The notes beneath the pieces were generated by a model. That model was not told where the DNA came from. It ran no database searches and saw only the letters and a list, made by a program, of their open reading frames with translations. Shown one piece after another: positions 26,161 through 60,296 of a DNA stretch of 64,000 nucleotides. The stretch comes from Pseudomonas sp. Irchel 3E13 (GTDB taxonomy: Bacteria > Pseudomonadota > Gammaproteobacteria > Pseudomonadales > Pseudomonadaceae). Numbering within the stretch: the first letter of the stretch is position 1; each line of letters begins with the position of its first letter. The translations under genes were made by a program, and so were the position numbers. Location of the stretch: contig NZ_FYDX01000012.1 in NCBI RefSeq assembly GCF_900187455.1, positions 156,402-220,401 of the forward strand, written 5' to 3'.

Positions 26161-26321
26161 GCCGTAGTGTCCAGTCAGTCAGATAGTTCGCTGATATCCG
26201 GGTCGCTTGGTCGCAGGCCCGGCTTCCTTGGGGATCCCACAAGTCTTAGGGACTTGCTCGAAAGCGCAAGCCACAGTGGGAGAAAGCGATTTGAAACTGC
26301 CACATAAAAGATTCCCGAGTG

Positions 26322-26339
26322 ATTACATTTCCGTAAGCT
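26322..26339 (-). promoter_or_regulatory. Putative CopR box upstream of copA
   Basis: ATTACATTTCCGTAAGCT, an inverted TTAC-N6-GTAA core. Similar boxes with the same orientation occur before both PtrA-domain genes, matching the known style of Pseudomonas cop boxes. Confidence 0.55.
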
Positions 26340-26343
26340 CGGA

Positions 26344-26550: not shown

Positions 26551-26642
26551 CTGGTGTTCCTCGGCGGATTACTGTGCGGCCCATGGAGTTCAGGCTTAGG
26601 GTCACATTAGCCAGGCTGCGCTTTCAGAAAGCTGAGCTCGGC

Positions 26643-26661
26643 ATTACAGTTTCGTCAGCTT
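26643..26661 (-). promoter_or_regulatory. Putative CopR box upstream of the first PtrA-domain gene
   Basis: ATTACAGTTTCGTCAGCTT, one base off the TTAC-N6-GTAA inverted core, with the same AGCTT tail as the box at 27217. Confidence 0.5.
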
Positions 26662-26740
26662 CATGCGGCCCCCAAAAAACGGCGCCGTGTGGGCGCCGAT
26701 AGGCCAAAGGAGCAGAAGGGGAGCGGCCACGAATCCAGGG

Positions 26741-27100
26741 TTATGGATGACACTCCTTGTCCGCCATCATCAATTTGTGTTCACGAACCATTTGATCGAG
26801 TACGTCATCAACCATCTTGTCGTGTTTCTCCATCCACGCCAGGTGATCTTCTTTGGACATACCCGCTTTGGGGTGATCTTGGTGCAATTGGCCCATCAGG
26901 TCCTGAAGCATGGTCATGTGCTCTTTCATATGCACATGTCGCTGGCCGGGCTCAGCTTTTTCCGCCCTCATCAGAACCGCTTCGGCTTTGTCGCGAAGCT
27001 GCTGCATCCGCTCTATTGCCCGATCGCTCCCACCTTCAGCAAAAACGGCCGACGACAGCAGCATAGATGTAGCCACAAGCAAAAGTCTGATCGATTTCAC
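26741..27100 (-). CDS. PtrA-domain periplasmic protein, 119 aa
   Basis: Read from GTG 27100, nine bases after GGAG, giving the signal peptide KSIRLLLVATSMLLSSAVFA and mature EGGSDRAIERMQQLRDKAEA, the PtrA N-terminal signature. The C-terminal part is helical with many Met and His residues (HVHMKEHMTMLQDLM), suggesting a metal-binding helical bundle. Divergent from copR, with a cop-like box in between. A longer frame upstream exists but lacks a signal sequence at its end. Confidence 0.75.
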   Translation of the reverse strand: MKSIRLLLVATSMLLSSAVFAEGGSDRAIERMQQLRDKAEAVLMRAEKAEPGQRHVHMKEHMTMLQDLMGQLHQDHPKAGMSKEDHLAWMEKHDKMVDDVLDQMVREHKLMMADKECHP

Positions 27101-27216
27101 GGGACTATCTCCATCAGGGGGGTTGAAGCAATTGCTACCGATAACGGCAGGCGTGACTGCATCGCCCGTCTTCAATGACCGTAGACGGCAGGCCCTGACA
27201 GCTGGCTGATACCAAC

Positions 27217-27235
27217 ATTACTTTTACGTCAGCTT
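27217..27235. promoter_or_regulatory. Putative CopR box between the PtrA-domain gene and copR
   Basis: ATTACTTTTACGTCAGCTT; it shares ATTAC-N6-GT and the AGCTT tail with the boxes at 26322 and 26643. Its location in the divergent promoter would let CopR control both itself and the PtrA-domain gene. Confidence 0.5.
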
Positions 27236-27293
27236 CTGGTTAGCTCACTTTTTTGCTGCACACTGGGTGTGTACACCTTTGGAAGCTGAGCAC

Positions 27294-27971
27294 ATGAAAC
27301 TACTCGTAGCTGAGGATGAACCGAAAACCGGTGCTTACTTGCAACAGGGCCTTGCAGAGGCGGGTTTCACTGTTGACCGGGTCCTCACGGGTACCGATGC
27401 CCTTCAACATGCACTCAGCGAAAGCTATGACTTGTTGATACTCGACGTGATGATGCCGGGGCTAGAAGGATGGGAAGTCTTGCGAATGGTCCGCGCAGCC
27501 GGCAAAGACGTCCCCGTATTGTTTCTGACTGCCAGGGATGGTGTGGATGATCGAGTGAAGGGCCTTGAGCTGGGAGCCGATGACTACCTGATCAAACCCT
27601 TCGCTTTCTCAGAACTGCTGGCTCGGGTGCGGACTTTGCTACGCAGGGGCACCAGCACAGCAGCCCAGACCACCATGAAAATGGCGGATCTTGAGGTAGA
27701 CCTCCTCAAACGAAGAGCTACTCGAAGTGGCAAGCGAATCGACCTGACCGCTAAAGAGTTTTCGCTTCTGGAGCTTTTGATGCGCCGGCGCGGTGAAGTG
27801 CTCCCCAAATCTCTGATTGCTTCCCAGGTGTGGGACATGAACTTCGACAGCGACACCAATGTGATCGAGGTGGCTATAAGACGGCTACGGGCAAAGATCG
27901 ATGATGACTTTGCCCCTAAGCTGATACATACCGCTCGGGGAATGGGCTACATGATGGATGCACCGGAGTGA
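27294..27971 (+). CDS. copR: Copper response regulator CopR (OmpR/PhoB family)
   Basis: A 225-aa two-domain regulator. The receiver domain (1-115) has the acidic pair EDE, phospho-acceptor Asp in [10 protein letters not shown] (D51), and [13 protein letters not shown] with the conserved Lys. The C-terminal winged helix (125-220) ends [11 protein letters not shown], as in CopR/CusR. When phosphorylated by CopS it should activate cop promoters. ATG 27294 starts MKLLVAEDE; the next gene overlaps by four bases. Confidence 0.92.
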
Positions 27972-29377
27972 TTTTGACCCGTTCCTCGCTCGTCAAGCGC
28001 CTGACGCTGATGATCATGTTCGCGGTCATCGCTGTTCTTGTGGTCGCAGGCATCAGCTTCAACATGCTGAGCCAGCATCACTTCCGCATGCTCGATGAAC
28101 AAGCGCTGTCTGAAAAGCTGGAGTCAACAAGACACATCCTGTCAATCCAGGCACCTGGAACGGGAATGGAAGAGCTGAGACCACAACTCCGCGCATTGCT
28201 GGGTGCTCATCAGGATCTGACGGCGGAGATTCTGACCTCAGAGGGTGAGGTACTATTTTCAGATCTCAAAGCAGTACAAGTTCCAGATAACTACAAGCGC
28301 GCCGACAAGGAAGAGATGTGGGAATGGCAGGACGAATCCCATAATTTCCGTGGTATCACCACTGACGTTGAGATCCTGGGCCAACCAGCTCCCGGAACCG
28401 TCATGCTGATGCTGGATATCACCAGCCATGCGCACTTCTTCGAAACCCTGCAACGGTGGTTTGCGATTGGTTTGGTTATCAGTGCGTTGGTCAGTGCTGG
28501 TATAGGCTGGCTGGTCGCGAAAAGTGGTCTACGCCCCGTCGAACAGATCACGAAGGTTGCTACGTCCATATCTGCCAGGTCACTTCAAGAGCGCATCCCT
28601 CTGGAGCCTGTACCACTCGAACTGCAAACACTGATCTTGTCCTTCAACGGGATGCTTGCACGCCTGGAAGATGCCTTCGTTCGTCTATCCAATTTCTCAG
28701 CTGATATCGCGCATGAGCTGCGAACACCTGTCAGTAACCTGTTAACGCACACCGAGGTGGTGCTGACCCGGAAGCGCGACGTCGACGCGTATGAAGAAAA
28801 CCTGTATTCAAACCTGGAAGATCTGAAGCGAATGTCACGCATGATCGATGACATGCTCTTCCTCGCCAAGTCAGACAACGGCCTCATCATCCCTGAGCAG
28901 GTTGACATCCAGCTTCATGACCTCGTTTCCAAGTTATTTGAGTACTACCAGCTGCTGGCGGACGATCGAGGCATACGACTCACGCTTCAAGGGAAAGGTA
29001 CTATCTCCGGAGACAGGCTCATGATCGATCGAGCTGTATCCAATATTCTCTCCAATGCCGTGCGATACACACCGGACGGAAGCGAGATCTCGGTAGAAAT
29101 TCAGCAAGCCGCAGACAAAGTAACCCTTACGATCAAAAACGGTGGGGCCACCATTGACCCTCAACACATCAACAAGATTTTTGATCGTTTCTACCGGGCC
29201 GACCCGGCAAGGCGAGAGGGGGGGCCTAACAATGCAGGGCTTGGTCTGGCCATTACCCGTTCCATCGTAAAAGCGCATGATGGAAAAGTCTGGTGCACCT
29301 CGTCCGAAGGGGTTACAGCATTCAATTTCGTTTTTCCTGCAGCGCACCGGACAGTTCACAATCGCTCGCGTCATTAA
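27968..29377 (+). CDS. copS: Copper sensor histidine kinase CopS
   Basis: Starts at a GTG overlapping the copR stop. Two membrane segments (about 12-32 and 160-185) bracket a periplasmic sensor loop; HAMP follows. The H-box is [14 protein letters not shown] with the phosphorylated His; the N-box is [13 protein letters not shown], and the G-box [16 protein letters not shown]. Copper in the periplasm is presumed to trigger autophosphorylation and transfer to CopR. Normal length for CusS/CopS. Confidence 0.92.
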
Positions 29378-39096: not shown

Positions 39097-40806
39097 TCAG
39101 GCCGCTTTACGCCTTGCCACCAGGACAACGACCGATACCGCAGTGCCGGCGAAGGCGTTCTCGATTACGCCGGACCACTCCAGTTCGAAGCCTGGGAGCA
39201 ACTCCTTGTGCTTAGCGATGGCCGGCAGAACCGCGGTTATCTGGCCGTCATCCGCCAGCAACCCTGCTGCAGCGTTCAAATGTGACAACCAGCGGCCTTC
39301 GCTGAATGGTGGGTTGCATACGACCCGGTCGAATCGCTCATCAGTCGTGCTCGCCCATTCAAGGAAGTCAGCCTGGGTAACGTCGAAGCCCTTCGCTGCA
39401 AGCACCTTGCAGTGCAACTCGCTGATCTCGATGCAACGGGTCTGGTCCTTGGGCATGTGATCGGCAAGGCCGCCTACCCCTGCTTGCGGCTCGAGGCAGG
39501 AATGCCCCTCCTGGATGTCGGCCAGATCGACTACCAGCTCAGCGAGAGTACCGGGGGTTGGGTAGAACTGATGCCCTTTGGTATCTGGGATGCAGCCGCT
39601 GATGATGATCTCGTCGAGCGCCTCCCGGGGGTCGAAAGCGAACTCAAACCATACGTGCGAATTCTTGTTATGGCGCACACCACCGATCATGGCCAGGACC
39701 TTTTCTGCCTCGGCCTGGACTGCCGCGTTGCGATCGCCATAGAACTGGAGAGCGTAGGGGTTTGCCGTCAGCGGCTGCCGTGGTTCCTGCCACCGATCCC
39801 ACTTCACAGGTTTATTCGGCTCAGATCGCATAGCCGACAGCATGGCAATCACCGGGAACGGCAACGGTTTCACGAAAACCTTGTGCTGTTTGGCCTTGGC
39901 CTTTGGCTTGGTGCGGAAACTTGCCGGGATGGCAGATGGGTAGATGCTGGCCAATACCGCGTTGAGTCGCCATGCCATTTCCGGGTGGACCTCGATATGG
40001 CAGGTCCCCTTTTTGAACAGCTTCATGCGCAGGGTGCCACCATCGACGTCGAACCATTCGCCCGTACGACGACGGAACGCGGTCAAAAGTGGCTGAGTAT
40101 CACCGTGTTTCAACTCCTCGCGCCCCATGAATTTAGCGATGATGCAGCGCAGGTCATTCAGGTATCCAGAGCGGTCATGATCGATGGTGTCATAGCTGGT
40201 GATCATGTTGGCGACGATCAACCGATTGCCGAAGGCGCCAGACTGGTTTGTGACGTGATCGCCGGACAATGCCCGGAATATACCGTCGACCCTTTCTGCA
40301 AAGAACCTTGAGCGCGACAACAGCAACTCGTTGAGAGTGGACCTCACGCTCATCTCTTCGAAATCAGGCAGAGGGTGGATCTCCCACTCTTCCTCGACCT
40401 GTTCCGACGACCGCCGCCTGTGAGCCTTCTTGCCCAATGGGTTGCGGATCTGTTCCTGCCATTCGGAGCGGCGTTTCTGGGGCATGCAATCATAGACGTC
40501 GGTCAGTGCCAGGGCCTTACCCCAGTAGGACGCGTTGAGCGATCCTATGGCCGGCTCCAGCTGCATCAAATTCGCGATGTTGGTGGTGTAGTAGCGTCCC
40601 TGTTCGCTGGTGTTGCCCTCCATGAAGTGATGGAGCGCCACGCTGTAGCCACCACCCGTCATCATCTCGTGCAACTGCTCGATACGGGCGCGTTCGGCCT
40701 GGTAACCACCAATCAGACCGTCTACCAGGTCGGAGGCGACCGGGGCGAAGAACTCGCAAGCGTCTTCGACAAGGTCACCAATTTGGGCGTGGGAGAGGTC
40801 AGTCAT
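39097..40806 (-). CDS. DUF4942-type protein with C-terminal adenine-methyltransferase domain, 569 aa
   Basis: The N-terminal 400 residues match the DUF4942 layout seen in phage and plasmid methyltransferases (e.g. GGGYSVALHHFMEGNTSEQGRYY is replaced in mature form by helices, and a FDPREAL segment follows). The last 170 residues are a Rossmann methyltransferase: FYPTPGTLAELVVDLA, an acidic loop LEPQAGVGGLADHM, and the catalytic CNPPFSEGRW of N6-adenine methyltransferases. It probably methylates adenine in DNA, self-protecting or regulatory. Single gene with its own start at ATG 40806. Confidence 0.8.
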   Translation of the reverse strand: MTDLSHAQIGDLVEDACEFFAPVASDLVDGLIGGYQAERARIEQLHEMMTGGGYSVALHHFMEGNTSEQGRYYTTNIANLMQLEPAIGSLNASYWGKALALTDVYDCMPQKRRSEWQEQIRNPLGKKAHRRRSSEQVEEEWEIHPLPDFEEMSVRSTLNELLLSRSRFFAERVDGIFRALSGDHVTNQSGAFGNRLIVANMITSYDTIDHDRSGYLNDLRCIIAKFMGREELKHGDTQPLLTAFRRRTGEWFDVDGGTLRMKLFKKGTCHIEVHPEMAWRLNAVLASIYPSAIPASFRTKPKAKAKQHKVFVKPLPFPVIAMLSAMRSEPNKPVKWDRWQEPRQPLTANPYALQFYGDRNAAVQAEAEKVLAMIGGVRHNKNSHVWFEFAFDPREALDEIIISGCIPDTKGHQFYPTPGTLAELVVDLADIQEGHSCLEPQAGVGGLADHMPKDQTRCIEISELHCKVLAAKGFDVTQADFLEWASTTDERFDRVVCNPPFSEGRWLSHLNAAAGLLADDGQITAVLPAIAKHKELLPGFELEWSGVIENAFAGTAVSVVVLVARRKAA

Positions 40807-48242: not shown

Positions 48243-49620
48243 ACGGAAACCGCCGCTCAGTTGCAATCAAGCTGACGGAGCCTCACTCTTGCGCCGACAA
48301 GTCGGGCTACTCACCAGGTACACCCAAGACCCGCCCCAAGGGTTGTCCAGGGTGTTCTGGTGCTGACCCGCCACCCAGGCCAGCATGGGGTGAGCGCCAC
48401 AACAGCCTCATGAAAAAATGCTGCCCCACGCGGAAGAATTTTTTCACCTCTCAGCGAGAACTCCTCCGTCACCACGGTCAATCCACAGCATCCTGGTAGG
48501 TCAGTTCGTCATTGTTCAGGAAGCGTTCCTTCTTGACATGGGCGTCCTGGATGGCCTGGGAGTTGTTCTGAATTGGCTTCCCACTGATCAGTGCCTCCAT
48601 CGACGATAGGGCTAGGTCTGACTTGGTTCCTGTTGCCGGCCAAGCCGAGCAGCAGGAACCGGTGGTGGCCTGATCAGCCAGCGACTGCGCCGACTACCCA
48701 GTGGGGATCCCCCGCGGCTCAACCGGGGGGGCTGGCGCTGACATTCGGTACCGGGTCAGATGCGGACGGGGCAGGCTTGAGCTGGTACGGGGTCCGTCAA
48801 CGGCACAACGGGCGTAGTGACCAGAGGCCGCCAACTGCAGCCTGCCCCGCTTCATCCACCAGTAGCCATTCCATCTCGCTGACGGACAAGGTACAGAACG
48901 TACGGCTGAGCTTGAGATGGTACTGCTCGGTACCGGGATGAACATGAACAGAGCGGCCCCAATCTGAGCCTTCACTTGCCCGAGAGTGACCGTCGTTGAG
49001 CCGGGGTCCACCCAGCACCTTCATCACAAGGCCGAGGTTGACCCGACGCCACTTAGGCAGAAGGGGGAATCATGTCCTATGCGGACGATGCGCCTCAGTT
49101 GACACCAGCTCACCTGTTCAACGCCACTCTGGAACCCTCCACGCCTCGACGTTGCTCAATGTTCGGTCGGCTTCACAGCCAGGCATGGTTGCGCTCAGCT
49201 TTGTACCGTTCGGCCAACGTAGCACCCCAGGTTCCAATCGCGTTGGTAGCCTGTCGCACCTGTTGCAACGCGGATTCTGCCATCGCCTTCTCTTGTCCTG
49301 TTCGGACGGTCGTTTTCGGGCGCTGCACTTTTATGGAGGCGTGCGCAGACTCTCCTTCAGCCGAAAGAAGAACCTTCTGGAGCAAGGGCAACGCAACCTG
49401 CCACTCTGGCCGTCACCGCAAAGGCTGGTGATGCTGGCCTGAACGCCGGCATTGTCGCTTTCTGACACTGGAGCTTTTCTGCTTGTGCCCGGGTTGTGCA
49501 CCAAGCGCTCCGCCAGATCGGGCTCAATCCTGGTGCCATGTCCCTTGTGACTGGCCTGGCAAACTCGCCCTCAACGCGTCCGACATTCACTCGCAGCACT
49601 GCGTCCGCCAGACAGGCCAT
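48243..49620 (-). pseudogene. Decayed region with traces of a helicase-like gene
   Basis: No intact gene spans this 1.4 kb. On the minus strand, fragments read like one broken protein: a coiled-coil stretch at about 49391-49173 (LQKVLLSAEGESAHASIKVQ and EKAMAESALQQVRQATNAIG), then at about 49027-48797 EMEWLLVDEAGQAAVGGLW, which resembles the DEAG-box region of a superfamily 1 helicase (WLLVDEAGQA). Stops and frame changes separate them. The helicase reading is tentative. Confidence 0.35.
48478..48600 (-). CDS. Possible small protein, 40 aa
   Basis: Minus-strand frame MEALISGKPIQNNSQAIQDAH ending QDAVD with TGA at 48478. The frame remains open and protein-like for about 40 codons further upstream with no start, so this could instead be the last piece of the decayed gene. 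No clear ribosome-binding site. Confidence 0.3.
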   Translation of the reverse strand: MEALISGKPIQNNSQAIQDAHVKKERFLNNDELTYQDAVD

Positions 49621-51190: not shown

Positions 51191-51549
51191 CAGAAACAGC
51201 GGCGGTGCTGCTGGGCGCAAGCAACGGACCATGACGGCAGGATTCGCCCGCTGTCCTTTTTGTGAGGCATGCGCGCGGGTTTGGCACCGGGAAATGGCGC
51301 ACATCGCACTAGCCGGACTGAGTGCGTTGGGTGCCCTCTTCGACTGTGCACCGCTTACCGCCGGCCATGCCAAATCCAAGACCCCAGCCAAGCACACCAT
51401 GTTCCAGGGGCTGCGCCCTTCCCTTTCCATTTTTCCGGCTGCGCCGGGCGGCCCGCAGGGCGGGCTTTCCCTTTCCATTTTTTCACTCGGCCCCTTCTAG
51501 CGCGTCAGCCTTGTCGACCACAGCTTCGCGTGTATGATGTTTACACATA

Positions 51550-51565
51550 CTGTACATTTATACAG
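51550..51565 (+). promoter_or_regulatory. LexA (SOS) box of umuDC
   Basis: CTGTACATTTATACAG fits CTGT-N8-ACAG, eight bases before umuD. SOS control of the polymerase operon follows. Confidence 0.85.
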
Positions 51566-51572
51566 GTTAGCC

Positions 51573-52013
51573 ATGCATACCATCTCAATCCTCGGCCGTA
51601 TTCGGCTGGAGCCTGCAACCAATCCGCTGCCGCTTTTCAGTTCGCGACTGAGCTGCGGCTTTCCGAGCCCTGCAGAGGACCTCGTCGAGGAAATGTCTTC
51701 GCTGGATGACATCGCGGTTACCAACCCTCCCGCAACGTACCTGGTGCGCAGTGGTGGCGACTCGATGATCGATGCCGGCATATGGCCGGACGATGTGATC
51801 GTGGTCGACAGGTCCAAGAAAGCAGTCAATCGCTCAATCGTTGTCGCCATTCACGAGGGCGAGTTTGTATGTAAGCGCTTGGTCATTGCAGGTGAAGTTG
51901 TCCTGCTCTGTCCGGAGAATCCAAGTTACGCACCAATAGTAATTTCAGACAAAGAGGCGCTCATTGTCTGGGGGGTCTGCACGTTCAATCTTCACAGGCT
52001 TTGCCCGGTATGA
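51573..52013 (+). CDS. umuD: UmuD/RulA-type SOS protein, 146 aa
   Basis: S24 peptidase family. The autocleavage site is the Cys-Gly in SCGFPSP (about residue 28), the nucleophile Ser is in GGDSMIDAG and the Lys in VAIHEGEFVCKRL. After RecA-stimulated self-cleavage it becomes the UmuD' subunit of DNA polymerase V. Length and the rulAB-like partner fit Pseudomonas plasmid rulA. A LexA box lies just upstream; umuC overlaps by four bases. Confidence 0.9.
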   Translation: MHTISILGRIRLEPATNPLPLFSSRLSCGFPSPAEDLVEEMSSLDDIAVTNPPATYLVRSGGDSMIDAGIWPDDVIVVDRSKKAVNRSIVVAIHEGEFVCKRLVIAGEVVLLCPENPSYAPIVISDKEALIVWGVCTFNLHRLCPV

Positions 52014-53281
52014 ACGGACGCCAGGCATTCATATTGTTCGATGCGAACAATTTCTATGTTTCTGCTGAGCGCGTGTGGCGTCCTGAACTTGAGAACAAGC
52101 CTGTTGTGGTCGCCGGATCCGGCGATGGCTGTGTTATATCTCGCTCAAATGAAGCCAAGGAACTTGGCATTAAAATGTCTGAACCTGTTCACCTCGTCCG
52201 TCAAGAACATTGGCGTTCCGGCGTAATTATTTGTTCAGCTAACTTTCCTTTATATGGTGATTTGTCGTCACGAATGATGAGATCGATTGCGACCCTCGCG
52301 CCGAGCATACTTACCTACTCAATTGATGAAGCCTTCGTTTTTGCCCATGGCATGTCTGACGAACAACTTCACCAGTTGACTATGCAGATTAGGGACCGCG
52401 TCCTCGCCTGGACCGGTCTTGCCACAGGCGCTGGAGTCGGCCCCACCCCTACCCTTGCAAAGCTAGGCTCGTACGGCGCTAAGCGCGTACTGAAGACTGG
52501 CTACTGCAACCTGATGTCGCCGATCGACCGAGATCAACTGCTGGCGCTCACTCCAGTCGGAGAGGTATGGGGAATCGGAGCAGCGACCGCCTCGCGGCTG
52601 ACCGGTATGGGGGTGACCACAGCTGCTGAATTCGCCATGCTCCCCAAGCACATCGTCGAAAGGGAGTTCCCAATCACCGTACGCCGTACTCAACTGGAAC
52701 TGAATGGCGTCTGCGCTGTGGACCTCAAGGGCAACGATGGCCCTCGAGAGATGATCAACGTGGGTCGAACCTTCGGTTCACGAATAGACACGCTGGATTC
52801 GCTCACAGCAGCACTGGTTGAGTTTGCTAGCCTGGCAGCCAGCAGACTAAGGAAGCAGGGGTCCGCAGCCTCAGCGATGAGGGTCTACGCCCGGACAAGT
52901 CCTTACGATAACAAGGATGCTCCGTACGCAAAGTCGATCACCGTCCCATTCTCTCAGCCAGCGTCTGATGTACGCATTTTCGCTAGGGCCGCTGCGCAAG
53001 CTGCGCGCACCATATTCAGGTCCGGGGTTCGTTTTTCTAAGGCGGGCGTTCTGCTTATGGGAGTTCAGCCAGCATCGGCAATGTCCCAGCAGGACCTGTT
53101 CGGTTACGACACGGGATTGCAGGATCGGTTGATGTCCACCTTGGACGAGATCAACTCCAGGTTTGGCCGCGGTACGGTGAAACTGGGGAGAACCATCGTT
53201 GCCGGTGGGTGGAAGCCCAGATCGGACAATCTGAGCCCTGCGTACTCATGTCGACTATCCGACCTCAAAGTCGTCTTCTGA
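52010..53281 (+). CDS. umuC: UmuC/RulB-type Y-family DNA polymerase, 423 aa
   Basis: Y-family translesion polymerase: LFDANNFYVSAERVW near the N-terminus with the first catalytic Asp, SIDEAFVF with the second Asp-Glu pair, helix-hairpin-helix and little finger domains after that (GVWGIG-type GEVWGIGAATASRL). Works with UmuD' in error-prone repair. ATG 52010 is chosen; a TTG three codons earlier is possible. Length equals rulB. It is the intact counterpart of the broken umuC at 61529-62513. Confidence 0.9.
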   Translation: MNGRQAFILFDANNFYVSAERVWRPELENKPVVVAGSGDGCVISRSNEAKELGIKMSEPVHLVRQEHWRSGVIICSANFPLYGDLSSRMMRSIATLAPSILTYSIDEAFVFAHGMSDEQLHQLTMQIRDRVLAWTGLATGAGVGPTPTLAKLGSYGAKRVLKTGYCNLMSPIDRDQLLALTPVGEVWGIGAATASRLTGMGVTTAAEFAMLPKHIVEREFPITVRRTQLELNGVCAVDLKGNDGPREMINVGRTFGSRIDTLDSLTAALVEFASLAASRLRKQGSAASAMRVYARTSPYDNKDAPYAKSITVPFSQPASDVRIFARAAAQAARTIFRSGVRFSKAGVLLMGVQPASAMSQQDLFGYDTGLQDRLMSTLDEINSRFGRGTVKLGRTIVAGGWKPRSDNLSPAYSCRLSDLKVVF

Positions 53282-53720: not shown

Positions 53721-54212
53721 CTATACGCCATCCACGATATGCAACCCATCCCTGATCGGAGGGTTGGCGTTTACGCGGCGCTGCAGATCCAGGAGCTGCT
53801 TTCGAGCCTTCATGTTGATTAGAAGGCTCTCACGGATAATCGCGAACTTCGGTTCGTAGGCGTGGAAGAGCTGCTGGATCCAGAAATCGGCATTTTTGAC
53901 AACCGACGCCTCCCTGTAGCTATGGGCCTTTCCTTTGGGAATGGCAACGGACCACGCCTTCAAGCCTCCGCTGGTTTTCTGGAACGTCACACGCTTCCAA
54001 ATGATCGACACTGATCCCGCCGTGTTCACCTTCACTTGAACCGTGCGGTACTGGATCTTCCCCTCTCGCTTGGCAGCCTCCAGGAACTCATCCCTTAACT
54101 GAAGGGCTTCGAGCTTGAGCTTCTCATGGACGATGTCGAGTTTCTTGATTACGTCGGAGTAGATCCCGCTGATCTCGCCGCGGACATCAGAACCACTGAT
54201 CGGATCAATCAT
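53721..54212 (-). CDS. MobI-like conjugative transfer protein, 163 aa
   Basis: A helical N-terminus (HEKLKLEALQLRDEFLEAAKR), a central beta part (VQVKVNTAGSVSIIWKRV) and a C-terminal helix with YEPKFAIIRESLLINMKARKQL resemble the MobI(A/C) proteins of SXT and IncA/C elements, which are needed for oriT processing and lie beside it. The relation is by pattern and not certain. The adjacent 54213-54500 region has perfect inverted repeats, as expected for an origin of transfer. Confidence 0.5.
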   Translation of the reverse strand: MIDPISGSDVRGEISGIYSDVIKKLDIVHEKLKLEALQLRDEFLEAAKREGKIQYRTVQVKVNTAGSVSIIWKRVTFQKTSGGLKAWSVAIPKGKAHSYREASVVKNADFWIQQLFHAYEPKFAIIRESLLINMKARKQLLDLQRRVNANPPIRDGLHIVDGV

Positions 54213-54500
54213 TACCCTATCCTTATAATAGGAATTTTGAAGTCTGGATTCCCCTACTAATCCGTGTAGTCGGAAATGGCAGAAAATCAGCAGTTTAAGA
54301 CCTGGGAATCCTGGTTTTCAAGAAAAATGTAGGTTCCTCTTATAGGGGAATGTAGCTTTTTCGTGAACGCACCGTATCAAATCGCCAGATTTTTCTTGTA
54401 TTCCTTTATATAGGAATCTAGCACTCAATATTTTTGCAATTCAGCTTCTGAGTAGTAGAGGCCTACATTCCCCTATAAGGAGAATTCAGCAAATTCCACG
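54213..54500. other. Inverted-repeat-rich region, candidate oriT
   Basis: CTTATAGGGGAATGTAG (54339-54355) pairs perfectly with CTACATTCCCCTATAAG (54463-54479). TATAATAGGAATTTT (54226-54240), TATATAGGAATC (54406-54417) and GGATTCCCCTACTA (54246-54259) are related short motifs. No gene is present from 54213 to 54796. Iterated motifs next to a MobI-like gene suggest an origin of transfer; a replication or partition site for the following parM pair is the alternative. Confidence 0.45.
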
Positions 54501-54796
54501 CCTATCAGCAAAATTGACCAATCTGTACGATTTTTAGCCAACTCGGGTGCGCGTTTCGCTGGTCTGAAATGAGGGGCAGATTGGGGGGTTGCATATTGGA
54601 AATCGATGGCAGGATTGAGATGAGAGGTGCGTTTCTCGACCGATTGTGCTCCTGCGAGACCTTCGGGGCATCGGTACAGACCACCTCACAATGAATCTCT
54701 TTTTTCGAAGCAGTTGCAATTGTTGACCGTTAGTCGACCGATTGAAGGCTGCTTGAATACCAACAGCAATCCCATACAAACGCTTAAGGAGCGAAC

Positions 54797-55807
54797 ATGG
54801 CCAGTAAAAGCAAACCAACCGGCGACTTCGTGGTAGGCCTGGACATCGGCTATTCGAACGTGAAAATTGCATTCGGTCATGCGGAGCAAGACCGGCCAAC
54901 CCTGATCATCCGCCCAGCTCAGGCAGCCCCAGTGGCAAGCCTCAATGGCAACGTGGATCTGAAGGACGGTGAGCACTACGTGTTTCTGAATGACGAGCAA
55001 TGGGTCGGATTCGTGAATCCAGGTCGCTCGGGGGTGAAGCGCGAGCTTCATGCGGACTATCCGTCCACCGACACCTACCGTGCCCTCTTCAACGCGTCTA
55101 TCAGCGAAGTGTGTCAGGACGGCCAGACTGAGATCGACCACCTGATTACAGGCCTCCCGGTGAAGCAAGCCCGTGATGAGCGGCTGGTCGAGCGGCTCAT
55201 CGCTCAGTTAACCGGTACTCACAAGGTCTCCCCCAAGCGAGAGATCACCGTGAAACGCGTCACGGTCCTGCCTCAACCTGTCGGCACCTTGAACTACATC
55301 TGCGCTACCTATGAGAACCCAGAGATCCTCGAGGAGTCGGTACTGCTGGTGCTCGACCCTGGGTTTTTCTCGGTTGACTGGGTTGTTTTCCGCCGGGGAG
55401 ATATCGTTCGCGACTCTTCTGACTCGTCCATGGAAGCCATGAGCGCCCTTCTGGATGCCATCAACGCAGAGATCGCCAAAGACTACGGTGGCAATGGACC
55501 GGGCCGCGATAAGATTGAGATCGCATTGCAGAACGGCCGAAGCCAAGTTCTCCTTTTTGGCGAGCAGGTAGACCTTGCACCCTACATTGATCAGGCCTGC
55601 AGCATCGTGGCCCCTAAAGCCCTGCTGAACATGAAGCAGCAGATGCGCTTCCTGGATGGAGAGGCGATGGACTTCGTCCTTCTGGGCGGCGGCGGCGGGC
55701 AATGCTACATGCCAGCCGCGCAGCAGGTCTTCCCTCGGTCCAAAACACTCACCTCCGACCGCCCGGTCATTTCGAATGCGTTTGGGTACTGGCTGCATCA
55801 CGGCTAA
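54797..55807 (+). CDS. parM: ParM/StbA-type actin-like plasmid segregation ATPase, 336 aa
   Basis: Actin fold: phosphate-1 loop in GLDIGYSNVKIAFG (residues 13-26), phosphate-2 loop in LVLDPGFFSVDWV (about 191-203), and adenosine motif LLGGGGGQCYMP (about 295-306). ParM polymerises to push plasmid copies apart, bound to DNA through an adaptor. The next gene is the likely adaptor. AAGGAG lies upstream of ATG 54797. Confidence 0.85.
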   Translation: MASKSKPTGDFVVGLDIGYSNVKIAFGHAEQDRPTLIIRPAQAAPVASLNGNVDLKDGEHYVFLNDEQWVGFVNPGRSGVKRELHADYPSTDTYRALFNASISEVCQDGQTEIDHLITGLPVKQARDERLVERLIAQLTGTHKVSPKREITVKRVTVLPQPVGTLNYICATYENPEILEESVLLVLDPGFFSVDWVVFRRGDIVRDSSDSSMEAMSALLDAINAEIAKDYGGNGPGRDKIEIALQNGRSQVLLFGEQVDLAPYIDQACSIVAPKALLNMKQQMRFLDGEAMDFVLLGGGGGQCYMPAAQQVFPRSKTLTSDRPVISNAFGYWLHHG

Positions 55808-55821
55808 GGGAGATGACAAAA

Positions 55822-56307
55822 ATGAGCGAGGTAGTGGAAGACGACACACTGAAAATGGTGGTCAAGCTGACTTCGGAATCGAAGATGCTTTACAACGATC
55901 TCGAAAGCATCTCAAAAATGCGGCGGGCCAGGCGTATCCTCTACCTCGCTCAGCTCGGCCTGATGTTTGAAAGAACGCTTGAAGAAAAAACGTCGACTGG
56001 CGCCGAAATCCCGGTAAAGCCATTGGTGCCCATGGCGCCTAGCGGGCCAGGGGAAGTAGGCTCTGACGAGCCATCGAAGGCAGCGGGTGAGCCGCCCCAT
56101 GTAGAGTCAGCTGGGGCCCCTACCCTTCCGAAGATTGAGCTACCAGTTGAACGTGCACAGGTCGCCACGGAAAGCAAAAATGCCGGCGACCAGGTGGTTG
56201 ACGCTACACCATTGGAGCAGTCCCATCCTCCTGCGAACGAGGTTCCATCTGCTGACACAGCCATAAACCCGCCTTTAAACCGCAGGAAGCCTGGTTTTAA
56301 ACTTTAA
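55822..56307 (+). CDS. Putative ParM partner (StbB/ParR-like), 161 aa
   Basis: AAGGGAG precedes ATG 55822 by nine bases, 14 bases after the parM stop. The N-terminal 45 residues (VVKLTSESKMLYNDLESI, KMRRARRILYLAQLG) look like a small helical DNA-binding module; the rest is Pro/Ala/Glu-rich and probably disordered. Such adaptors bind the partition site and filament end. Assigned by position and shape. Confidence 0.65.
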   Translation: MSEVVEDDTLKMVVKLTSESKMLYNDLESISKMRRARRILYLAQLGLMFERTLEEKTSTGAEIPVKPLVPMAPSGPGEVGSDEPSKAAGEPPHVESAGAPTLPKIELPVERAQVATESKNAGDQVVDATPLEQSHPPANEVPSADTAINPPLNRRKPGFKL

Positions 56308-56320
56308 ACTCAATAGAAAC

Positions 56321-56349
56321 AGAAAGCCCCTAACAAAGGGGCTTTTTTT
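56321..56349 (+). terminator. Rho-independent terminator after the partition operon
   Basis: AAAGCCCC-TAACAA-GGGGCTTTTTTT, a stem followed by a seven-T run, directly after the stop of the parM-partner gene. Confidence 0.85.
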
Positions 56350-57043
56350 ATAGTGCGCTCAAGGACATCCGACAAACAACCTTGGCTATCACCCGGGTAT
56401 CACTATTTTTTGGTAGCCCTGTTTCAGGGTCGATCGGAACTGTAGTGCCGAGGATGTTGGGATTTGTAGAGGTAAGAGCAAAACCAGTTATCACGGGTGA
56501 AACTTGCCTAAGAACAACCGATTCACGAATTGATATTAAGTAGACACCTTCGTGAAGCGTTTTCTGTGATATGTCAACCAAAATAATGTCATTTCTGGAT
56601 ATCACCGTTTTTAATGCATCTGTGTTTACCAAAACAGCCCTTGTGTTCTCTGGTGTTAAACCGTACTCCGATAATAACCTAAGGGGCATTGGTAGGGTTC
56701 GAAGAACGGACTCTACGACTATCGCAGGCGGCTCTTTCTTCAGCACGCCTTGGGTGAAGGCCAGCTGTTCCGGGCTCTGCACCAGCAAAGAGGCAGAGTC
56801 ACCTGCCTTCGTAACGTCGGAGCCAGTGCCCAGGTACTCGACAGTCGTTTCCAATACTCGGGCCAACTGAACAAGCCGCTCACGAGTGCAAGAGGTACCT
56901 TTATAAAGCATGTTCTTGACTGTGGATTCAGATTCTTCCAGCAGCTGTGCCAGCTTTGTTGCTGAGATTTCCTGGGCCTTCATCAACTCACTCACACGAG
57001 TGACAAAGGCTTGATGGCTAGTCGCTTCAGCGGCGTACTGCAT
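56348..57043 (-). CDS. CI/SetR-like repressor with inactive S24-type C-terminus, 231 aa
   Basis: Residues about 15-70 form an HTH_XRE domain (ISATKLAQLLEESESTVKNMLY). The C-terminal 110 residues have the S24 (LexA-like) fold (NDIILVDISQKTLHEGVYLI and VVLRQVSP), but the nucleophile Ser is replaced (TDALKT) and the Lys by Arg or Leu (VVLRQV). Self-cleavage is therefore unlikely, and induction may work differently from SetR. Divergent from the transglycosylase/FlhDC-like operon; operator palindrome TTTACACC-N8-GGTGTAAA lies just upstream. Confidence 0.75.
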   Translation of the reverse strand: MQYAAEATSHQAFVTRVSELMKAQEISATKLAQLLEESESTVKNMLYKGTSCTRERLVQLARVLETTVEYLGTGSDVTKAGDSASLLVQSPEQLAFTQGVLKKEPPAIVVESVLRTLPMPLRLLSEYGLTPENTRAVLVNTDALKTVISRNDIILVDISQKTLHEGVYLISIRESVVLRQVSPVITGFALTSTNPNILGTTVPIDPETGLPKNSDTRVIAKVVCRMSLSAL

Positions 57044-57117
57044 GTAGTGCGGTCCTCGGCAATTCCACCTTGGTTAAAATTCAAATGATCAAAACAACTC
57101 ATTTATAGGTGTGTCAA

Positions 57118-57141
57118 TTTACACCCTTTCAATGGTGTAAA
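57118..57141. promoter_or_regulatory. Operator palindrome in the repressor/transfer intergenic region
   Basis: TTTACACC-CTTTCAAT-GGTGTAAA, perfect 8-base arms, between the divergent repressor and transglycosylase genes. A second partial motif (TTTTAGGGTAAAATTTAC) is near 57164-57181. The 398-base gap contains no gene. Confidence 0.6.
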
Positions 57142-57441
57142 TCAAAACCGTGAAATCTGACCCTTTTAGGGTAAAATTTACTCATAGCAGTGTAGAATTT
57201 TGTAGTAGCACCTTGACGCCAAAATCACGTCAAAATGGTGGCACCATGCCACTTTTTAGCCGTTTATTACAAAAACAAGTCAAAATCCTGCCGCAAGTAC
57301 CACCGTTCGTCTGAATATTCGCGCTTGTCTACACTGGTAGAGGGTCATATTATGGTGAACCATCTTGAAACATCCTGAACCATGGGTAGAATGCGCCCCG
57401 ACGTTGGGCGTATTTATGCACTAGGATAGGGTCATATTTCG

Positions 57442-58008
57442 ATGGATTGCACACCACGACTCACAAGGACGATAGGCGCTGGCATAGCCTTGCTGCCGCT
57501 GGTCGCAGGGGCCTTCAGTCTTGAAGGTACCGTCTGGGAGCAAGAATCGAGTCGAGCCTGCAAGGTTGACCCAAAGCTTCTGTATGCAATAGCTCTTGTC
57601 GAATCAAAAAAAATCTCCGGCCCCGTCGCCAGACCGAACCCTTACGCCTTGAACATCGACAACAAGGCCTATCACCCAACGACGCACACTAAGGCCGCAG
57701 ATCTGCTCAACAGCGCCCTGACCAGGACGAAGTCCATAGCTGTCGGTGCCATGCAGGTGAGCATTCGCTGGAACGGTAATCGTGTCTCAAATCCCGAGGA
57801 TCTCCTGGACCTCCGGACAAACGTACGCGTCGGCACACAGATACTGTGCGAATTCATCAAAGGCGGCAAAGGCGACGACCACAGCCTGGCTGTTGCGTTA
57901 GGCCGGTATCACACGCCGAACCCTGAACTGCAACACGTTGCACGTGACTATGGGGTAAATGTCCTCCGAGTATGGCGGCGCCTCATCGTTCTCGAGCAGG
58001 AGGGCTGA
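57442..58008 (+). CDS. VirB1-type lytic transglycosylase, 188 aa
   Basis: The N-terminus is a signal peptide (GAGIALLPLVAGAFS). The SLT domain has the catalytic Glu in YAIALVESKK (about residue 54), GAMQVSIRWNG, and LGRYHTPNPE, as in conjugation-associated transglycosylases. It opens peptidoglycan for the transfer apparatus. In SXT the gene just before the FlhD/FlhC-type activators is of this type, matching the order here. Confidence 0.8.
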   Translation: MDCTPRLTRTIGAGIALLPLVAGAFSLEGTVWEQESSRACKVDPKLLYAIALVESKKISGPVARPNPYALNIDNKAYHPTTHTKAADLLNSALTRTKSIAVGAMQVSIRWNGNRVSNPEDLLDLRTNVRVGTQILCEFIKGGKGDDHSLAVALGRYHTPNPELQHVARDYGVNVLRVWRRLIVLEQEG

Positions 58009-58013
58009 CCGTG

Positions 58014-58520
58014 ATGGACTCGTACGCACTGAACCTGGCGCTAAGGGTTGCTCAAGAATGGGCAATCAACAACGACCCTGCCTATGGCCGTTTCTTTGAC
58101 TTAGCACCTGTCGACCGTCAATGGCTCATTCAGGCCTCTGAGAGCGACTTAACTGAGCTCTCGTCCCTGCCCTCCTCCATTCTTCTTGTAAAAATCGGCA
58201 CCCTGAGTGACGACAATTGCACAGGCTTTAATACCCCCTCCCATGCGGTCTCGACGGTCAGTCAGCTGCTAGGGGCGATCTCAGATGATCTTCGGGTGAG
58301 AGGCCGGGTTGCAATGATTGACTGGGGAATCAGTTGCCCGGACAAAGCTAGCTGGCTTGCGCAGAGCAAGATGAAGGATCGCGTACGTCTAGCTGCGTTA
58401 GGGAAGGTTACCTTCGCTACACGTACGTCATTCTGCAAAATTATCGTTGGTGCTCCTGATAGCACAGTGCGAATTGCCAACCTGATGCGAATACTCTCAG
58501 GGGGGCGCCGGAGTGAATAA
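58014..58520 (+). CDS. FlhD/SetD-like activator subunit, 168 aa
   Basis: The first 70 residues (SYALNLALRVAQEWAINNDPAYGRFFDLAP, DLTELSSLPSSILLVKIG) follow the FlhD pattern: a long helix with AQ-x-x, D-x-x-A-x-x-F, then a short L-rich helix. FlhD forms a complex with FlhC to activate transcription. A C-terminal extension of about 70 residues is unlike FlhD. GTG 58011 is an alternative start. Overlaps the next gene by eight bases. Confidence 0.55.
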   Translation: MDSYALNLALRVAQEWAINNDPAYGRFFDLAPVDRQWLIQASESDLTELSSLPSSILLVKIGTLSDDNCTGFNTPSHAVSTVSQLLGAISDDLRVRGRVAMIDWGISCPDKASWLAQSKMKDRVRLAALGKVTFATRTSFCKIIVGAPDSTVRIANLMRILSGGRRSE

Positions 58521-58947
58521 ACAGCGTCAGGCACTACGCTTGCTCAAAGCTGGGCTCAGCCCAATCCTGGTCAACATTCAGACCGGACTTTCCACTGACC
58601 AAATCTTGATGCCGGCCGATTTGAAGGCACAAGTGGTCTGTGACCTGGGCGCCCAAAAGATCTCCACTCTGGACGACATTCTCGCAGCTCCGCACGGGGC
58701 TTCCGATGCAGCTGCTCTGCTGCTGCTTTACACGGCTAAAACAGGCCGTGCTGAGTTAGAGGTCGACATCGATAAGCTTGTCAGCGCGTACGAGGACTAC
58801 CTCCGCGAATGCCGGCTTGTATCCCAATCTAGTGTCACCTCCCCTCTTTCACTGAACGACGCCTGGGTTCTCGCTCGAGAACTGCGAAGCTCAGATCAGA
58901 TATCACTACTAAACAAAATCCTATCTAACGTCGTAAAGGGGCACTGA
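58513..58947 (+). CDS. Short FlhC-like protein lacking the zinc domain, 144 aa
   Basis: Starts at GTG 58513. The N-terminus (LRLLKAGLSPILVNIQTGLSTDQI) and the C-terminal SLNDAWVLARELRSSDQISLL are similar to the FlhC-like protein that follows, but the sequence ends before the C-x-x-C zinc site. It may be a duplicated or diverged FlhC-type subunit. Confidence 0.55.
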   Translation: MNKQRQALRLLKAGLSPILVNIQTGLSTDQILMPADLKAQVVCDLGAQKISTLDDILAAPHGASDAAALLLLYTAKTGRAELEVDIDKLVSAYEDYLRECRLVSQSSVTSPLSLNDAWVLARELRSSDQISLLNKILSNVVKGH

Positions 58948-58948
58948 A

Positions 58949-59722
58949 ATGGACGAAGCGCTTGCCGGTGTTTTGGTTAAAGCAGGATTCCGATCAGCAA
59001 TCATTCGGCTTCACACCGGCCTGACTCGGAAGCAAGTGACAAGCCTGAGAAAGAAGCTAGGGGTTTGTGGCCCTTCAGAATCTGGCCCCTTGCCAAACGC
59101 AGAGAGCCTTCTTGTGAAACGTGCCGTCAGCTTGGAGGCATCCCTCTTCATGCTGGCCTATCTGATTACCGCCGTTAAACCGCGTGAAGCCATTGATATT
59201 CACGCAGTCATGGCAGCGCACACCCAGTACCTGGACAGCCACGCCAGCCTTAGGGGCGGGAACATGGACCTGGAGAACATCCTCGAGCTCGATGACGCTT
59301 GGCTGGTTGCACGTGACTACCGAAGCCAGGAAGTTACCATGCGCACATGTAACTCCTGCCACGTCGAATTTGTAGCCAGTATCAACCATCGGCGACACGC
59401 CTGCCCCCTGTGTGACGGGGTGCAGGTTCGCGACCCATTCCACTGTGATTTCGCCGACCGTCCAGTGTCCACTCGCAGTGTTGGTGAACTCCTGGAAGTA
59501 TCCCAGAAAGTCAGCCAGTGGGAAAATTGGGGGTACTCGACCGAAGAGCTTCGGCATGAACTGTCCCTTTCAGTTCACGAGTTCACAGCTTGTAAAAAGA
59601 TCCTATCCATCACCGAGGCCGACATCAGTCGCCTATGCGCCAAGTATTCGACTGGCGATCGATTGGTGAAGCACCTGATCAAAGCATCAACGACACAGGC
59701 CCGTACCTTGTTGGCAGCTTGA
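58949..59722 (+). CDS. FlhC/SetC-like transcriptional activator with C-terminal extension, 257 aa
   Basis: Residues 1-150 match FlhC: LVKAGFRSAIIRLHTGLTRKQV, SLEASLFMLAYLITAV, LDDAWLVARDYRSQEV and the zinc site CNSCHVEFVAS...CPLCDG (C131, C134, C149, C152 approximately). A further 100 residues contain an HTH-like helix set (WGYSTEELRHELSLSVHEFTAC). With the FlhD-like protein it probably forms a SetCD/AcaCD-type master activator of transfer genes. Starts two bases after the previous stop. Confidence 0.7.
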   Translation: MDEALAGVLVKAGFRSAIIRLHTGLTRKQVTSLRKKLGVCGPSESGPLPNAESLLVKRAVSLEASLFMLAYLITAVKPREAIDIHAVMAAHTQYLDSHASLRGGNMDLENILELDDAWLVARDYRSQEVTMRTCNSCHVEFVASINHRRHACPLCDGVQVRDPFHCDFADRPVSTRSVGELLEVSQKVSQWENWGYSTEELRHELSLSVHEFTACKKILSITEADISRLCAKYSTGDRLVKHLIKASTTQARTLLAA

Positions 59723-59723
59723 A

Positions 59724-60296
59724 ATGCATACGCCTACAGATGAGCAGGCGGCATTTCAATTGGCTTCCGTGAGCCTGCTTGGGGCTCCTAGGGGGATTAT
59801 CAAATCGACAGCCGGGGCCGGTTGCGGGAAAACAACTGCATTGAAGGGCGCAGTAAGCGACTGCAGTCGAGCCGGCGCAAGCCGGCTTCTGGTTTTGGCC
59901 TATAGCAAACCACTTATCACTGAGATGCAAGCCGCATTTGGTAGTTGCGCTATCGTTCGAACCTTCAACAGCATTGCGCTTGAGTCCGTCAGGGCCCACA
60001 CAGATGTACGCTCAATCGGGCAGATTTATCCATCCCATGTAGTTCAAGCCTTTGATCTTAATAAGAAAAGGCTGCCCATCGACATTCAGTCCTTCGCGAA
60101 GATCATTATTGGAGTAGTGGGCAAGTACTGCTCGAGCGCTGATAGGACCTTAACAACAGCACATGTCCCATCCTGGGTGAGGGACCCCGTCGTAGCGGAA
60201 CTCGGCATGCAGTATGCGACGGTCCTCTTCAACGCTCTACGGGTGACATCAAGAACAACGCTTCCCCTCCCCCATGACGTTTATCTGCCCTATTAA
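59724..60296 (+). pseudogene. UvrD/PcrA-type helicase truncated after its first quarter
   Basis: N-terminal part of a superfamily 1 helicase: TDEQAAFQL (Q-motif), STAGAGCGKTTALKG (Walker A), LVLAYSKPLITEM and RTFNSIALESV (motif Ia). The normal sequence breaks after LPHDVYL at about 60289, where unrelated DNA begins, and the frame ends seven bases later. Motifs II-VI are absent from the window, so it is not functional as it stands. Starts one base after the FlhC-like stop. Confidence 0.7.

What the first reader, a model, noticed from the sequence alone, without database searches (positions are those of the whole stretch)
53721..59722. SXT/IncC-like transfer-control module in a Pseudomonas-type element
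MobI-like protein, CI-like repressor with divergent operator, VirB1-type transglycosylase, FlhD-like protein and FlhC-like proteins occur in the SXT-like order. Known SetCD/AcaCD systems are from Vibrio and Enterobacterales; this would be a distant version with an additional, zinc-less FlhC-like protein.
Basis: partly seen in the sequence, partly recalled or inferred. Interest (0 to 1): 0.7.

Follow-up and report, generated by a model that had tools for sequence, protein, structure and literature searches.

The report
Plasmid transfer switch with extra subunit
This stretch of a large plasmid, probably from a Pseudomonas, carries what is very probably the master switch for its spread between cells, a distant cousin of switches known from enteric and Vibrio mobile elements, with an additional cut-down copy of one of its two parts.

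Summary
Window 53721-59722 encodes MobI, a ParM-like protein, a divergent CI-like repressor, a VirB1-type transglycosylase, a 168-aa protein D, a 144-aa zinc-less FlhC paralogue (C') and a 257-aa FlhC protein (C). It lies on a 234-kb contig with MOBH relaxase and F-type transfer genes: plasmid rather than SXT-type ICE. The layout resembles IncT plasmid Rts1, where slt, setD and setC are needed for transfer. The same order was read in 12 of 12 Pseudomonas plasmid records; C' is in 8 of 13 listed. D misses Pfam FlhD, but shuffle controls support two weak FlhD-like repeats, as in AcaD.

New here: a palindromic site (GACCC-N7-GGGTC-AGATT) about 75-90 bp before the traL, dsbC, acaB and mobH promoters in eight plasmids. 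A matrix learned only from five distant plasmids ranks the host contig's acaB, traL and dsbC sites 8th, 10th and 17th of 467,770 positions (mobH 203rd). I read it as the D/C operator; binding is untested. The CI proteins lack the LexA-type Ser-Lys pair, so classical SOS cleavage is unlikely.

C' forms one clade, is under purifying selection, and evolves faster than D and C. Its role is unknown. Verdict: new variant of the SetCD/AcaCD kind.

The parts
53721..54212 (-). mobI-like gene (163 aa), mobilisation protein
   Evidence: Pfam MobI E=3.6e-14; orthologues annotated mobI in relatives
54213..54796 (.). mobI-parM intergenic region, candidate oriT; 22-nt inverted repeat arms 54334-54355 and 54463-54484
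   Evidence: Rts1 oriT lies next to mobI (PMC10838148, passage); nick site not tested
54797..55807 (+). ParM/StbA-like actin gene (336 aa)
   Evidence: Pfam ALP_N E=3.5e-28
55822..56307 (+). small ParM-adjacent gene (161 aa); same place as Rts1 orf249 (deletion raised transfer 402-fold) but without sequence match to it
   Evidence: position, paper table; BLASTP to orf249 E=1.9, to the CP102429 copy E=3e-8; no Pfam hit
56348..57043 (-). CI-like repressor gene (231 aa), HTH plus S24-like domain without the Ser-Lys pair
57117..57142 (.). inverted repeat ATTTACACCCTT/AATGGTGTAAAT, candidate CI operator
57154..57175 (-). activator-type site facing the repressor gene (score 14.2, 0 of 200 shuffles as high)
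57342..57351 (+). half-site GGGTCATATT upstream of the -35
57365..57392 (+). sigma-70-like promoter TTGAAA-N16-TAGAAT of the slt-D-C'-C operon; -35 identical in the 7 plasmids aligned, -10 in 6 of 7
57429..57438 (+). second half-site GGGTCATATT just before the slt start codon
57442..58008 (+). slt, VirB1-type lytic transglycosylase (188 aa)
   Evidence: Pfam SLT; 44% identity to Rts1 slt over 167 columns, E=8e-46
58014..58520 (+). D, protein in the SetD/AcaD position (168 aa) with two weak FlhD-like repeats
58513..58947 (+). C', zinc-less FlhC N-domain paralogue (144 aa, GTG start overlapping the end of D)
58949..59722 (+). C, FlhC-type protein (257 aa) with Cys4 zinc site and a C-terminal HTH-like extension
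59724..60296 (+). N-terminal part of a UvrD-like helicase gene that follows C in most relatives; the rest lies near the other end of the contig

Best explanation
A transfer-control switch of a conjugative plasmid family of Pseudomonas. The CI-like repressor (56348-57043) holds down the conserved promoter of the slt-D-C'-C operon. When repression lifts, D and C form an FlhDC/AcaCD-like complex that binds a palindromic site upstream of the transfer operons (traL, dsbC-traC, acaB, mobH) and recruits RNA polymerase there; the AcaB-like protein would reinforce it, as in IncC. In several plasmids a site also faces the repressor gene, so the activator may switch its own repressor back on. C' shares C's N-terminal domain but lacks the zinc domain; most likely it joins or competes for D and tunes the complex. 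SHOWN: gene identities, conservation, the shared site and its near-fixed position. INFERRED: which protein binds it, direction of control, derepression signal, role of C'.
For: Gene identities. Similar layout in Rts1, where setC and setD deletions abolish transfer and their complementation exceeds wild type. Transfer backbone on the same contig: mobH, traD, traL/E/K/B/V/A, dsbC, trbC, traU, traN, traH, traG, recT, exo. The order mobI-parM-cI-slt-D-[C']-C was read in 12 of 12 Pseudomonas plasmid records fetched, of 15 Pseudomonas records that match C, 13 of them listed. De novo 22-bp motif in 30 upstream regions of 8 plasmids: 29 sites look alike by eye, 28 start 74-90 bp before the start codon; log ratio 270 against 64-70 for 4 shuffled sets run with fewer restarts. 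Repeated with the 18 regions of the five distant plasmids only and equal restarts: 149.5 against 64.8-74.2 for 8 shuffled sets; that matrix ranks the contig's acaB, traL and dsbC sites 8th, 10th and 17th of 467,770 positions. In IncC, PtraL, PtraI (relaxase gene) and acaB are AcaCD-inducible, the AcaCD core is GCCCAAAATGGGC, and IncC traL has GCCCGAAAAGGGC at -83.
Against: No binding or expression data. D has no significant single-database match; D against Rts1 SetD or AcaD alone is not significant, and the FlhD/AcaD-repeat test is modest (1 of 300 shuffles as high) with a profile that I built after seeing the pattern by eye. AF2 model of D unusable (mean pLDDT 42.8). The contig's mobH site is weak (rank 203; 33); P. 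psychrotolerans mobH had no proper site and pQBR55 mobH had one at -138. With the matrix of the two near relatives the contig's traL site in its own orientation and its mobH site are not among the top 25. Places scoring at least as high as the traL site with the matrix include 142128, 192345, 109458 and 161344, which I could not tie to transfer genes. The loose palindrome occurs at 6 places in the contig, only 3 of them before these operons. In the IncC plasmid the exact GCCC-N5-6-GGGC pattern was found before traL and the gene preceding it, not before dsbC, mobH or the acaB-position gene. I picked traL, dsbC and mobH after seeing the motif in two plasmids. PLSDB types 9 of the 12 records read as non-mobilizable and PA83 as MOBP/MPF_T.
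Confidence: 0.78

Rival explanations
1. The palindromic site is the operator of the CI-like repressor, which represses the transfer operons directly; D/C act elsewhere.
For: In 5 of the 10 cI-slt regions scanned (host contig, P. psychrotolerans, P. putida, pF051, pPALO532) a good site lies there, 0 of 200 shuffles as high in each; half-sites bracket the slt promoter.
Against: PA83 (best score -1.8, 198 of 200 shuffles as high) and pQBR55 (6.1, 22 of 200) have no site between cI and slt although their transfer promoters do; CP146204 (7 of 200), P. mandelii (18 of 200) and LS-2 (9 of 200) have only weak ones. The CI region has its own inverted repeat.
Confidence: 0.17
2. C' is a decaying duplicate of C without function.
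For: Absent from 5 of 13 plasmid records; faster evolution (dN/dS 0.56 against 0.02 for D and 0.06 for C between CP146204 and P. mandelii); the last residues of the CP146204 copy differ from its relatives.
Against: One clade that splits like the C tree, open reading frames kept over deep divergence, dN/dS 0.18-0.21 in three more distant pairs, where dS is above 1, 18 invariant residues in 7 sequences, tight coupling between D and C.
Confidence: 0.15
3. The FlhDC-like proteins mainly reprogram host genes (motility) rather than transfer.
For: FlhDC is a flagellar regulator in enterics (established knowledge).
Against: The host genome holds no further match to C at E<=0.001 apart from C'; the sites precede transfer operons. 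The host chromosome was not scanned for the site.
Confidence: 0.05

Closest known systems
SetR/SLT/SetD/SetC module of IncT plasmid Rts1 (PMC10838148, passages read)
   Same: Order mobI, ParM, small gene, slt, setD, setC; SetD without FlhD match; slt 44% identical; C 30% identical over 158 aa
   Different: No CI-type divergent gene between the small gene and slt, no C' between setD and setC, SetC only 163 aa without the C-terminal extension; D not alignable to Rts1-type SetD
AcaDC/Acr1/AcaB circuit of IncC plasmids (PMC4207636, PMC11493245, PMC5058578, passages read)
   Same: slt-D-C order, two FlhD stretches in AcaD, AcaB-like gene E=2e-17, palindromic CCC...GGG site at -83 of traL
   Different: Repressor Acr1 is a small HTH protein (90-aa gene), CI-like here; site is GACCC-N7-GGGTC-AGATT, not GCCC-N5-GGGC; extra C' and longer C
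SetR/SetCD of SXT/R391 ICEs (PMC4344509, PMC4542580, passages read)
   Same: CI-related repressor controlling an FlhDC-like class II activator; sites just upstream of -35
   Different: ICE against plasmid; SetR is thought to be RecA-cleaved, the CI here lacks the catalytic pair; SetC and SetD letters were not held, so not compared directly
Flagellar FlhDC (PDB 2avu, 8j56)
   Same: C profile positions 3-156 match FlhC (E=8.1e-13) with the four zinc Cys
   Different: Plasmid-borne, extra C-terminal HTH-like domain, divergent D, and C'

Membership tests
FlhC family (PF05280) | Domain score above the curated cut-off; Cys4 zinc site (for C) | tested here: met
   52.3 bits against 27; Cys134/137/152/155 invariant in 10 sequences
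FlhC family (PF05280) | Same for C' | tested here: not met
   13.2 bits against 27; zinc region absent. C' is a paralogue of the N-domain, not a full member
FlhD family (PF05247) | Domain score above the curated cut-off (for D) | tested here: not met
   0 families; AcaD as yardstick passes, 31.6 bits against 27, but Rts1-type D proteins of pECTOK-001 and pPROV008 also fail; PMC4542580 calls the Pfam profiles unsuitable for such orthologues; repeats weakly FlhD-like
SetCD/AcaCD-type transfer activators | FlhC-like and D gene adjacent or nearly so, downstream of slt, near mobI and parM, on a MOBH/F-type element | tested here: met
   yardsticks. C' lies between D and C, unlike the yardsticks
SetCD/AcaCD-type transfer activators | Common operator upstream of transfer operons | tested here: met
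   (sequence only; mobH weak in the host contig)
SetCD/AcaCD-type transfer activators | Required for conjugation | not testable with these tools
   needs mutants and mating assays
SXT/R391 ICE | Chromosomal integration at prfC with SXT-type int and att sites | tested here: inconclusive
   contig carries trfA-, ParA- and ParB-like genes and resembles complete plasmids; an integrase-like gene is present too; att sites not sought
IncC plasmid | IncC replicon | not tested
   a trfA-like gene was found; IncC repA was not searched
SOS-cleaved CI/LexA-type repressor (SetR) | Ser-Lys catalytic pair in the S24 domain | tested here: not met
   11 aligned CI proteins, some near-identical: Ser column is Ala in 8, Val in 1, Ser in 2 (AP025274, CP017294); Lys column is Leu, Met or Ile in all 11. 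Columns assigned by eye against the LexA motif, which is recalled
MobI (PF19456) | Domain score above the curated cut-off | tested here: met
   53.3 bits against 26.6

The most novel reading that the evidence does not exclude
A three-subunit FlhDC-type activator: beside D and C, a dedicated zinc-less FlhC paralogue (C') is made in the same translationally coupled operon and builds mixed complexes that tune or gate conjugation. C' would be a built-in modulator that I have not seen described for SetCD, AcaCD, SgaCD or FlhDC, evolving fast because it sets how strongly each plasmid transfers.
Probability: 0.4. Interest if true: 0.68.

Novelty: new variant of a known kind. Interest (0 to 1): 0.52.

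Why it matters
Several large Pseudomonas plasmids, among them ones from human-source P. aeruginosa, carry this module, and I found no description of their transfer regulator in the paper listings seen. Naming the regulator and an operator makes the regulon predictable, allows a search for islands that borrow the helper's signal (as SGI1 does from IncC), and gives a clean test of what an extra FlhC-like subunit does. pQBR55, which carries the module without C', conjugates in the laboratory strain P. fluorescens SBW25, at a comparatively low rate (PMC4989453, passages).

Tried and rejected
Structure of D: AF2 on 4 sequences gave mean pLDDT 42.8; not used for fold search. AF2 of C (mean 60.6) was used only for the FlhC core and the helices at 178-219.

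D against the AcaD set, Rts1-type SetD and single sequences by hhalign: not significant; Rts1-type SetD against AcaD also not. Against the FlhD/AcaD-repeat profile, Rts1-type SetD failed in its first half (24 of 150 shuffles as high) and passed in its second (2 of 150). A match of D to a leucine-rich repeat protein chain in the PDB search (27 residues) was set aside as a likely repeat artefact. Spike-protein matches of C' (E>=0.15) are taken as noise; FlhC itself was listed there at E=0.18.

Viral contigs: two scans, no relatives. Genome contigs: 2 loci only. Seven of the 10 genomes matched in the genus survey (398 searched) gave only weak FlhC matches; the contexts that I read (L033-L036; that output was cut) look flagellar (MotA- and FliS-like neighbours, recognised by eye), so they were not counted as the module.

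A possible site upstream of traF (48951-48972) and the positions 142128, 192345, 109458 and 161344 were left unassigned. The matrix took its sites from a joint matrix that had seen the host contig; one search was run to remove that leak, and its ranks (8, 10, 17, 203) are the ones to use instead of 3, 4, 8, 33.

In one search I read the window's ParM-adjacent gene one base off; replace that comparison.

Rows dropped before counts: pF061_2 D (annotated as truncated) was left out of the D alignment, while its transfer region was used in the motif work; CP115197 was never fetched (its C and C' are known only, C' at E=0.1); two of the 15 Pseudomonas records matching C were not listed; the C' tree used 8 of 10 known C' sequences; P. 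putida mobH (cut by the fetched stretch) and pQBR55 acaB (not identified) gave no upstream region; P. psychrotolerans mobH was dropped before the matrix but kept; A6 used 7 of 11 CI proteins.
Full report
OBSERVATION. On window coordinates: mobI-like 53721-54212(-), ParM-like 54797-55807(+), a small gene 55822-56307(+), CI-like repressor 56348-57043(-), slt 57442-58008(+), D 58014-58520(+), C' 58513-58947(+), C 58949-59722(+). Pfam gives MobI E=3.6e-14, ALP_N E=3.5e-28, S24 and HTH for CI, SLT E=4.4e-5, FlhC E=7.6e-14 for C; C' is sub-threshold (E=0.075) and D has nothing. The C' GTG overlaps the last 8 bases of D, and one base separates the C' stop from the C start, so the three are likely translated together (inference).

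WHERE IT LIES. The window is G000:C10:156402-220401 of an unnamed 7.24-Mb genome in 48 contigs; C10 is 233,906 bases. That the host is a Pseudomonas is inferred from its relatives. tblastn with proteins of the complete plasmid NZ_CP146204 found on C10 a MOBH relaxase, traD, traL/E/K/B/V/A, dsbC, trbC, traU, traN, traH, traG, recT, exo, trfA, parA, parB and more (traC was not in the query set). So it is plasmid DNA of a conjugative type (inference), not an SXT-type ICE. The helicase gene that follows C in relatives is split between 59724-60296 and C10:29634-30494. The genome has no further match to C besides C' at E<=0.001.

FAMILY. tblastn with C against 72,556 plasmid records matches 15 Pseudomonas records, of which 13 appear in the listing, with 78-97% of C covered. 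Twelve were fetched, and in all 12 the order mobI(-), parM, cI(-), slt, D, [C'], C was read (in CP075772 the gene at the mobI place is annotated hypothetical). Helicase, parA and parB follow in 11 of 12; CP102429 has an integrase gene instead. mobH was seen on the 7 plasmids whose transfer regions I read. PLSDB nevertheless types 9 of the 12 as non-mobilizable and PA83 as MOBP. C' is in 8 of 13: 7 as an annotated gene between D and C, CP115197 by a weak tblastn place only (E=0.1). It is also in the window and in Pseudomonas sp. LS-2, and absent from AP025274, CP017294, CP102429, pQBR55 and CP017887 and from G392. In a genus sample, 10 of 398 genomes match the C profile at 1e-6, of which 3 are of this long type. 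C' was found in 1 of 95 relatives, the window's own genome.

D. AcaD passes Pfam FlhD (E=2e-7) but D and the Rts1-type D proteins tested do not; PMC4542580 itself calls the Pfam profiles unsuitable for such orthologues (passage). A profile of 8 FlhD-like proteins plus the two FlhD-like repeats of AcaD and of its pVPH1 relative scored D better than 299 of 300 column-shuffled D alignments; D residues 1-69 gave 4 of 150, 70-168 gave 0 of 150, and repeat 1 against repeat 2 gave 0 of 150. FlhD alone (89 of 300) and AcaD alone (17 of 300) were not convincing, and I cut the AcaD repeats after seeing the pattern by eye. I conclude, at about 0.8, that D is a diverged double FlhD-like protein.

C AND C'. 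C matches solved FlhC (profile positions 3-156, E=8.1e-13), has four invariant Cys, and carries about 100 extra C-terminal residues with an invariant WG, modelled as helices 178-193, 198-204 and 209-219 with block pLDDT 78-85 over 181-220; Foldseek finds FlhC in the first three ranks and only weak LuxR-type HTH matches (E above 1) for the rest. AcaC has 183 aa, Rts1 SetC 163, pQBR55 C 216. C' aligns to the C N-domain with E=2.6e-20. In a tree of 29 N-domains C' is one clade (99/98) that splits like the C tree, which fits one duplication. dN/dS of C' is 0.18-0.56 against 0.02-0.15 for D and C in pairs where dS could be computed; dS is saturated in the distant pairs.

REPRESSOR. The HTH resembles P22 c2 (E=0.0012). 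In 11 aligned CI proteins the Lys column of the S24 pair is Leu, Met or Ile in all, and Ser is kept only in AP025274 and CP017294 (read by eye, LexA motif recalled). SetR of SXT is thought to be RecA-cleaved (PMC4344509, passage), so the inducing signal should differ here.

OPERATOR. Aligning upstream regions of C10 and CP146204 showed a shared palindrome. GACCC-N7-GGGTC-AGATT occurs in CP146204 205149-330000 at exactly three places, before acaB, dsbC and traL; in C10 the loose palindrome occurs at six places, three of them before the same genes. The seven other plasmids compared carry a like or drifted version before traL and dsbC; P. mandelii is nearly identical to CP146204. A de novo search of 30 upstream regions from 8 plasmids recovered it in 29 by eye, 28 of them 74-90 bp before the start codon; log ratio 270 against 64-70 for 4 shuffled sets with fewer restarts. 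The plasmids are related and I chose the operons after the first two, so the fair test is: 18 regions of the five distant plasmids alone give 149.5 against 64.8-74.2 for 8 shuffled sets with equal restarts, and that matrix ranks the C10 acaB, traL and dsbC sites 8th, 10th and 17th of 467,770, at 81, 75 and 78 bp from the start; mobH is 203rd.

WHO BINDS. AcaCD and SetCD sit just upstream of or over the -35 element. In IncC, PtraL, PtraI and acaB are AcaCD-inducible and a traN fusion rises about 260-fold; for the dsbC-traC promoter I saw no explicit statement. The AcaCD core is GCCCAAAATGGGC. In an IncC plasmid the exact pattern lies at -83 of traL but was not found before dsbC, mobH or the acaB-position gene. 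PA83 and pQBR55 have the site before transfer operons but not between cI and slt, which speaks against the CI protein as binder. Five of ten plasmids do have a good site there, the best one facing cI in each; P. putida, pF051 and pPALO532 have further ones facing slt. I read this as feedback by the activator on its repressor (inference).

COMPARISON. Rts1 is the nearest tested system: deletion of setC, setD or mobI abolishes transfer, slt loss cuts it to 0.00025 of wild type, and orf249 is negative (PMC10838148, passages). The window's small gene sits where orf249 sits but does not match it (E=1.9); whether it is a second negative input is open. PMC4542580 (passages) names Enterobacteriaceae and Vibrionaceae as hosts of FlhCD-like activators. 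In the listings that I saw (several capped) no paper described the Pseudomonas module; two pQBR papers hold no mention of FlhC. Most subscription journals are not covered.

VERDICT. New variant of a known kind; function as transfer activator very likely, operator well supported by sequence, role of C' open.

Noticed in passing
window 59724-60296 and C10:29634-30494: The helicase gene that follows C in most relatives is split; its two parts lie near opposite ends of the contig, so inserted DNA or a rearrangement separates them.
   Followed up: partly
window 55822-56307: Small gene after parM in the position of Rts1 orf249, whose deletion raised Rts1 transfer 402-fold; no match to orf249, but similar to the gene at that place in CP102429 (E=3e-8).
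   Followed up: partly
C10:78532-79185 (outside the window): AcaB-like gene, 23% identical to the IncC gene at the acaB position (E=2e-17), with a strong operator-type site before it.
   Followed up: yes
window 54334-54355 and 54463-54484: 22-nt inverted repeat in the mobI-parM gap, candidate oriT; the region is only partly conserved in CP146204.
   Followed up: partly
window 51534-53281: UmuD-like (by eye) and UmuC-type polymerase genes just left of the module; such pairs are annotated there in several relatives.
   Followed up: no
window 24319-29377: Copper-resistance-like cargo: multicopper oxidase and CusS-like sensor kinase.
   Followed up: no
window 7455-8627, 15800-20670, 39097-40806: Mrr-type restriction endonuclease; integrase-like gene followed by two large genes without Pfam match; DUF4942/N6-methylase protein.
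   Followed up: no
L044 (G486): Another gammaproteobacterial locus with, by eye, an S24-like repressor, an SLT-like gene, an FlhD-like gene (over the Pfam cut-off) and an FlhC-like gene in this order, possibly a further element with such a switch.
   Followed up: no
PLSDB NZ_CP054622 (L021): Unannotated FlhC-like sequence on an Azospirillum oryzae plasmid typed MOBH.
   Followed up: no
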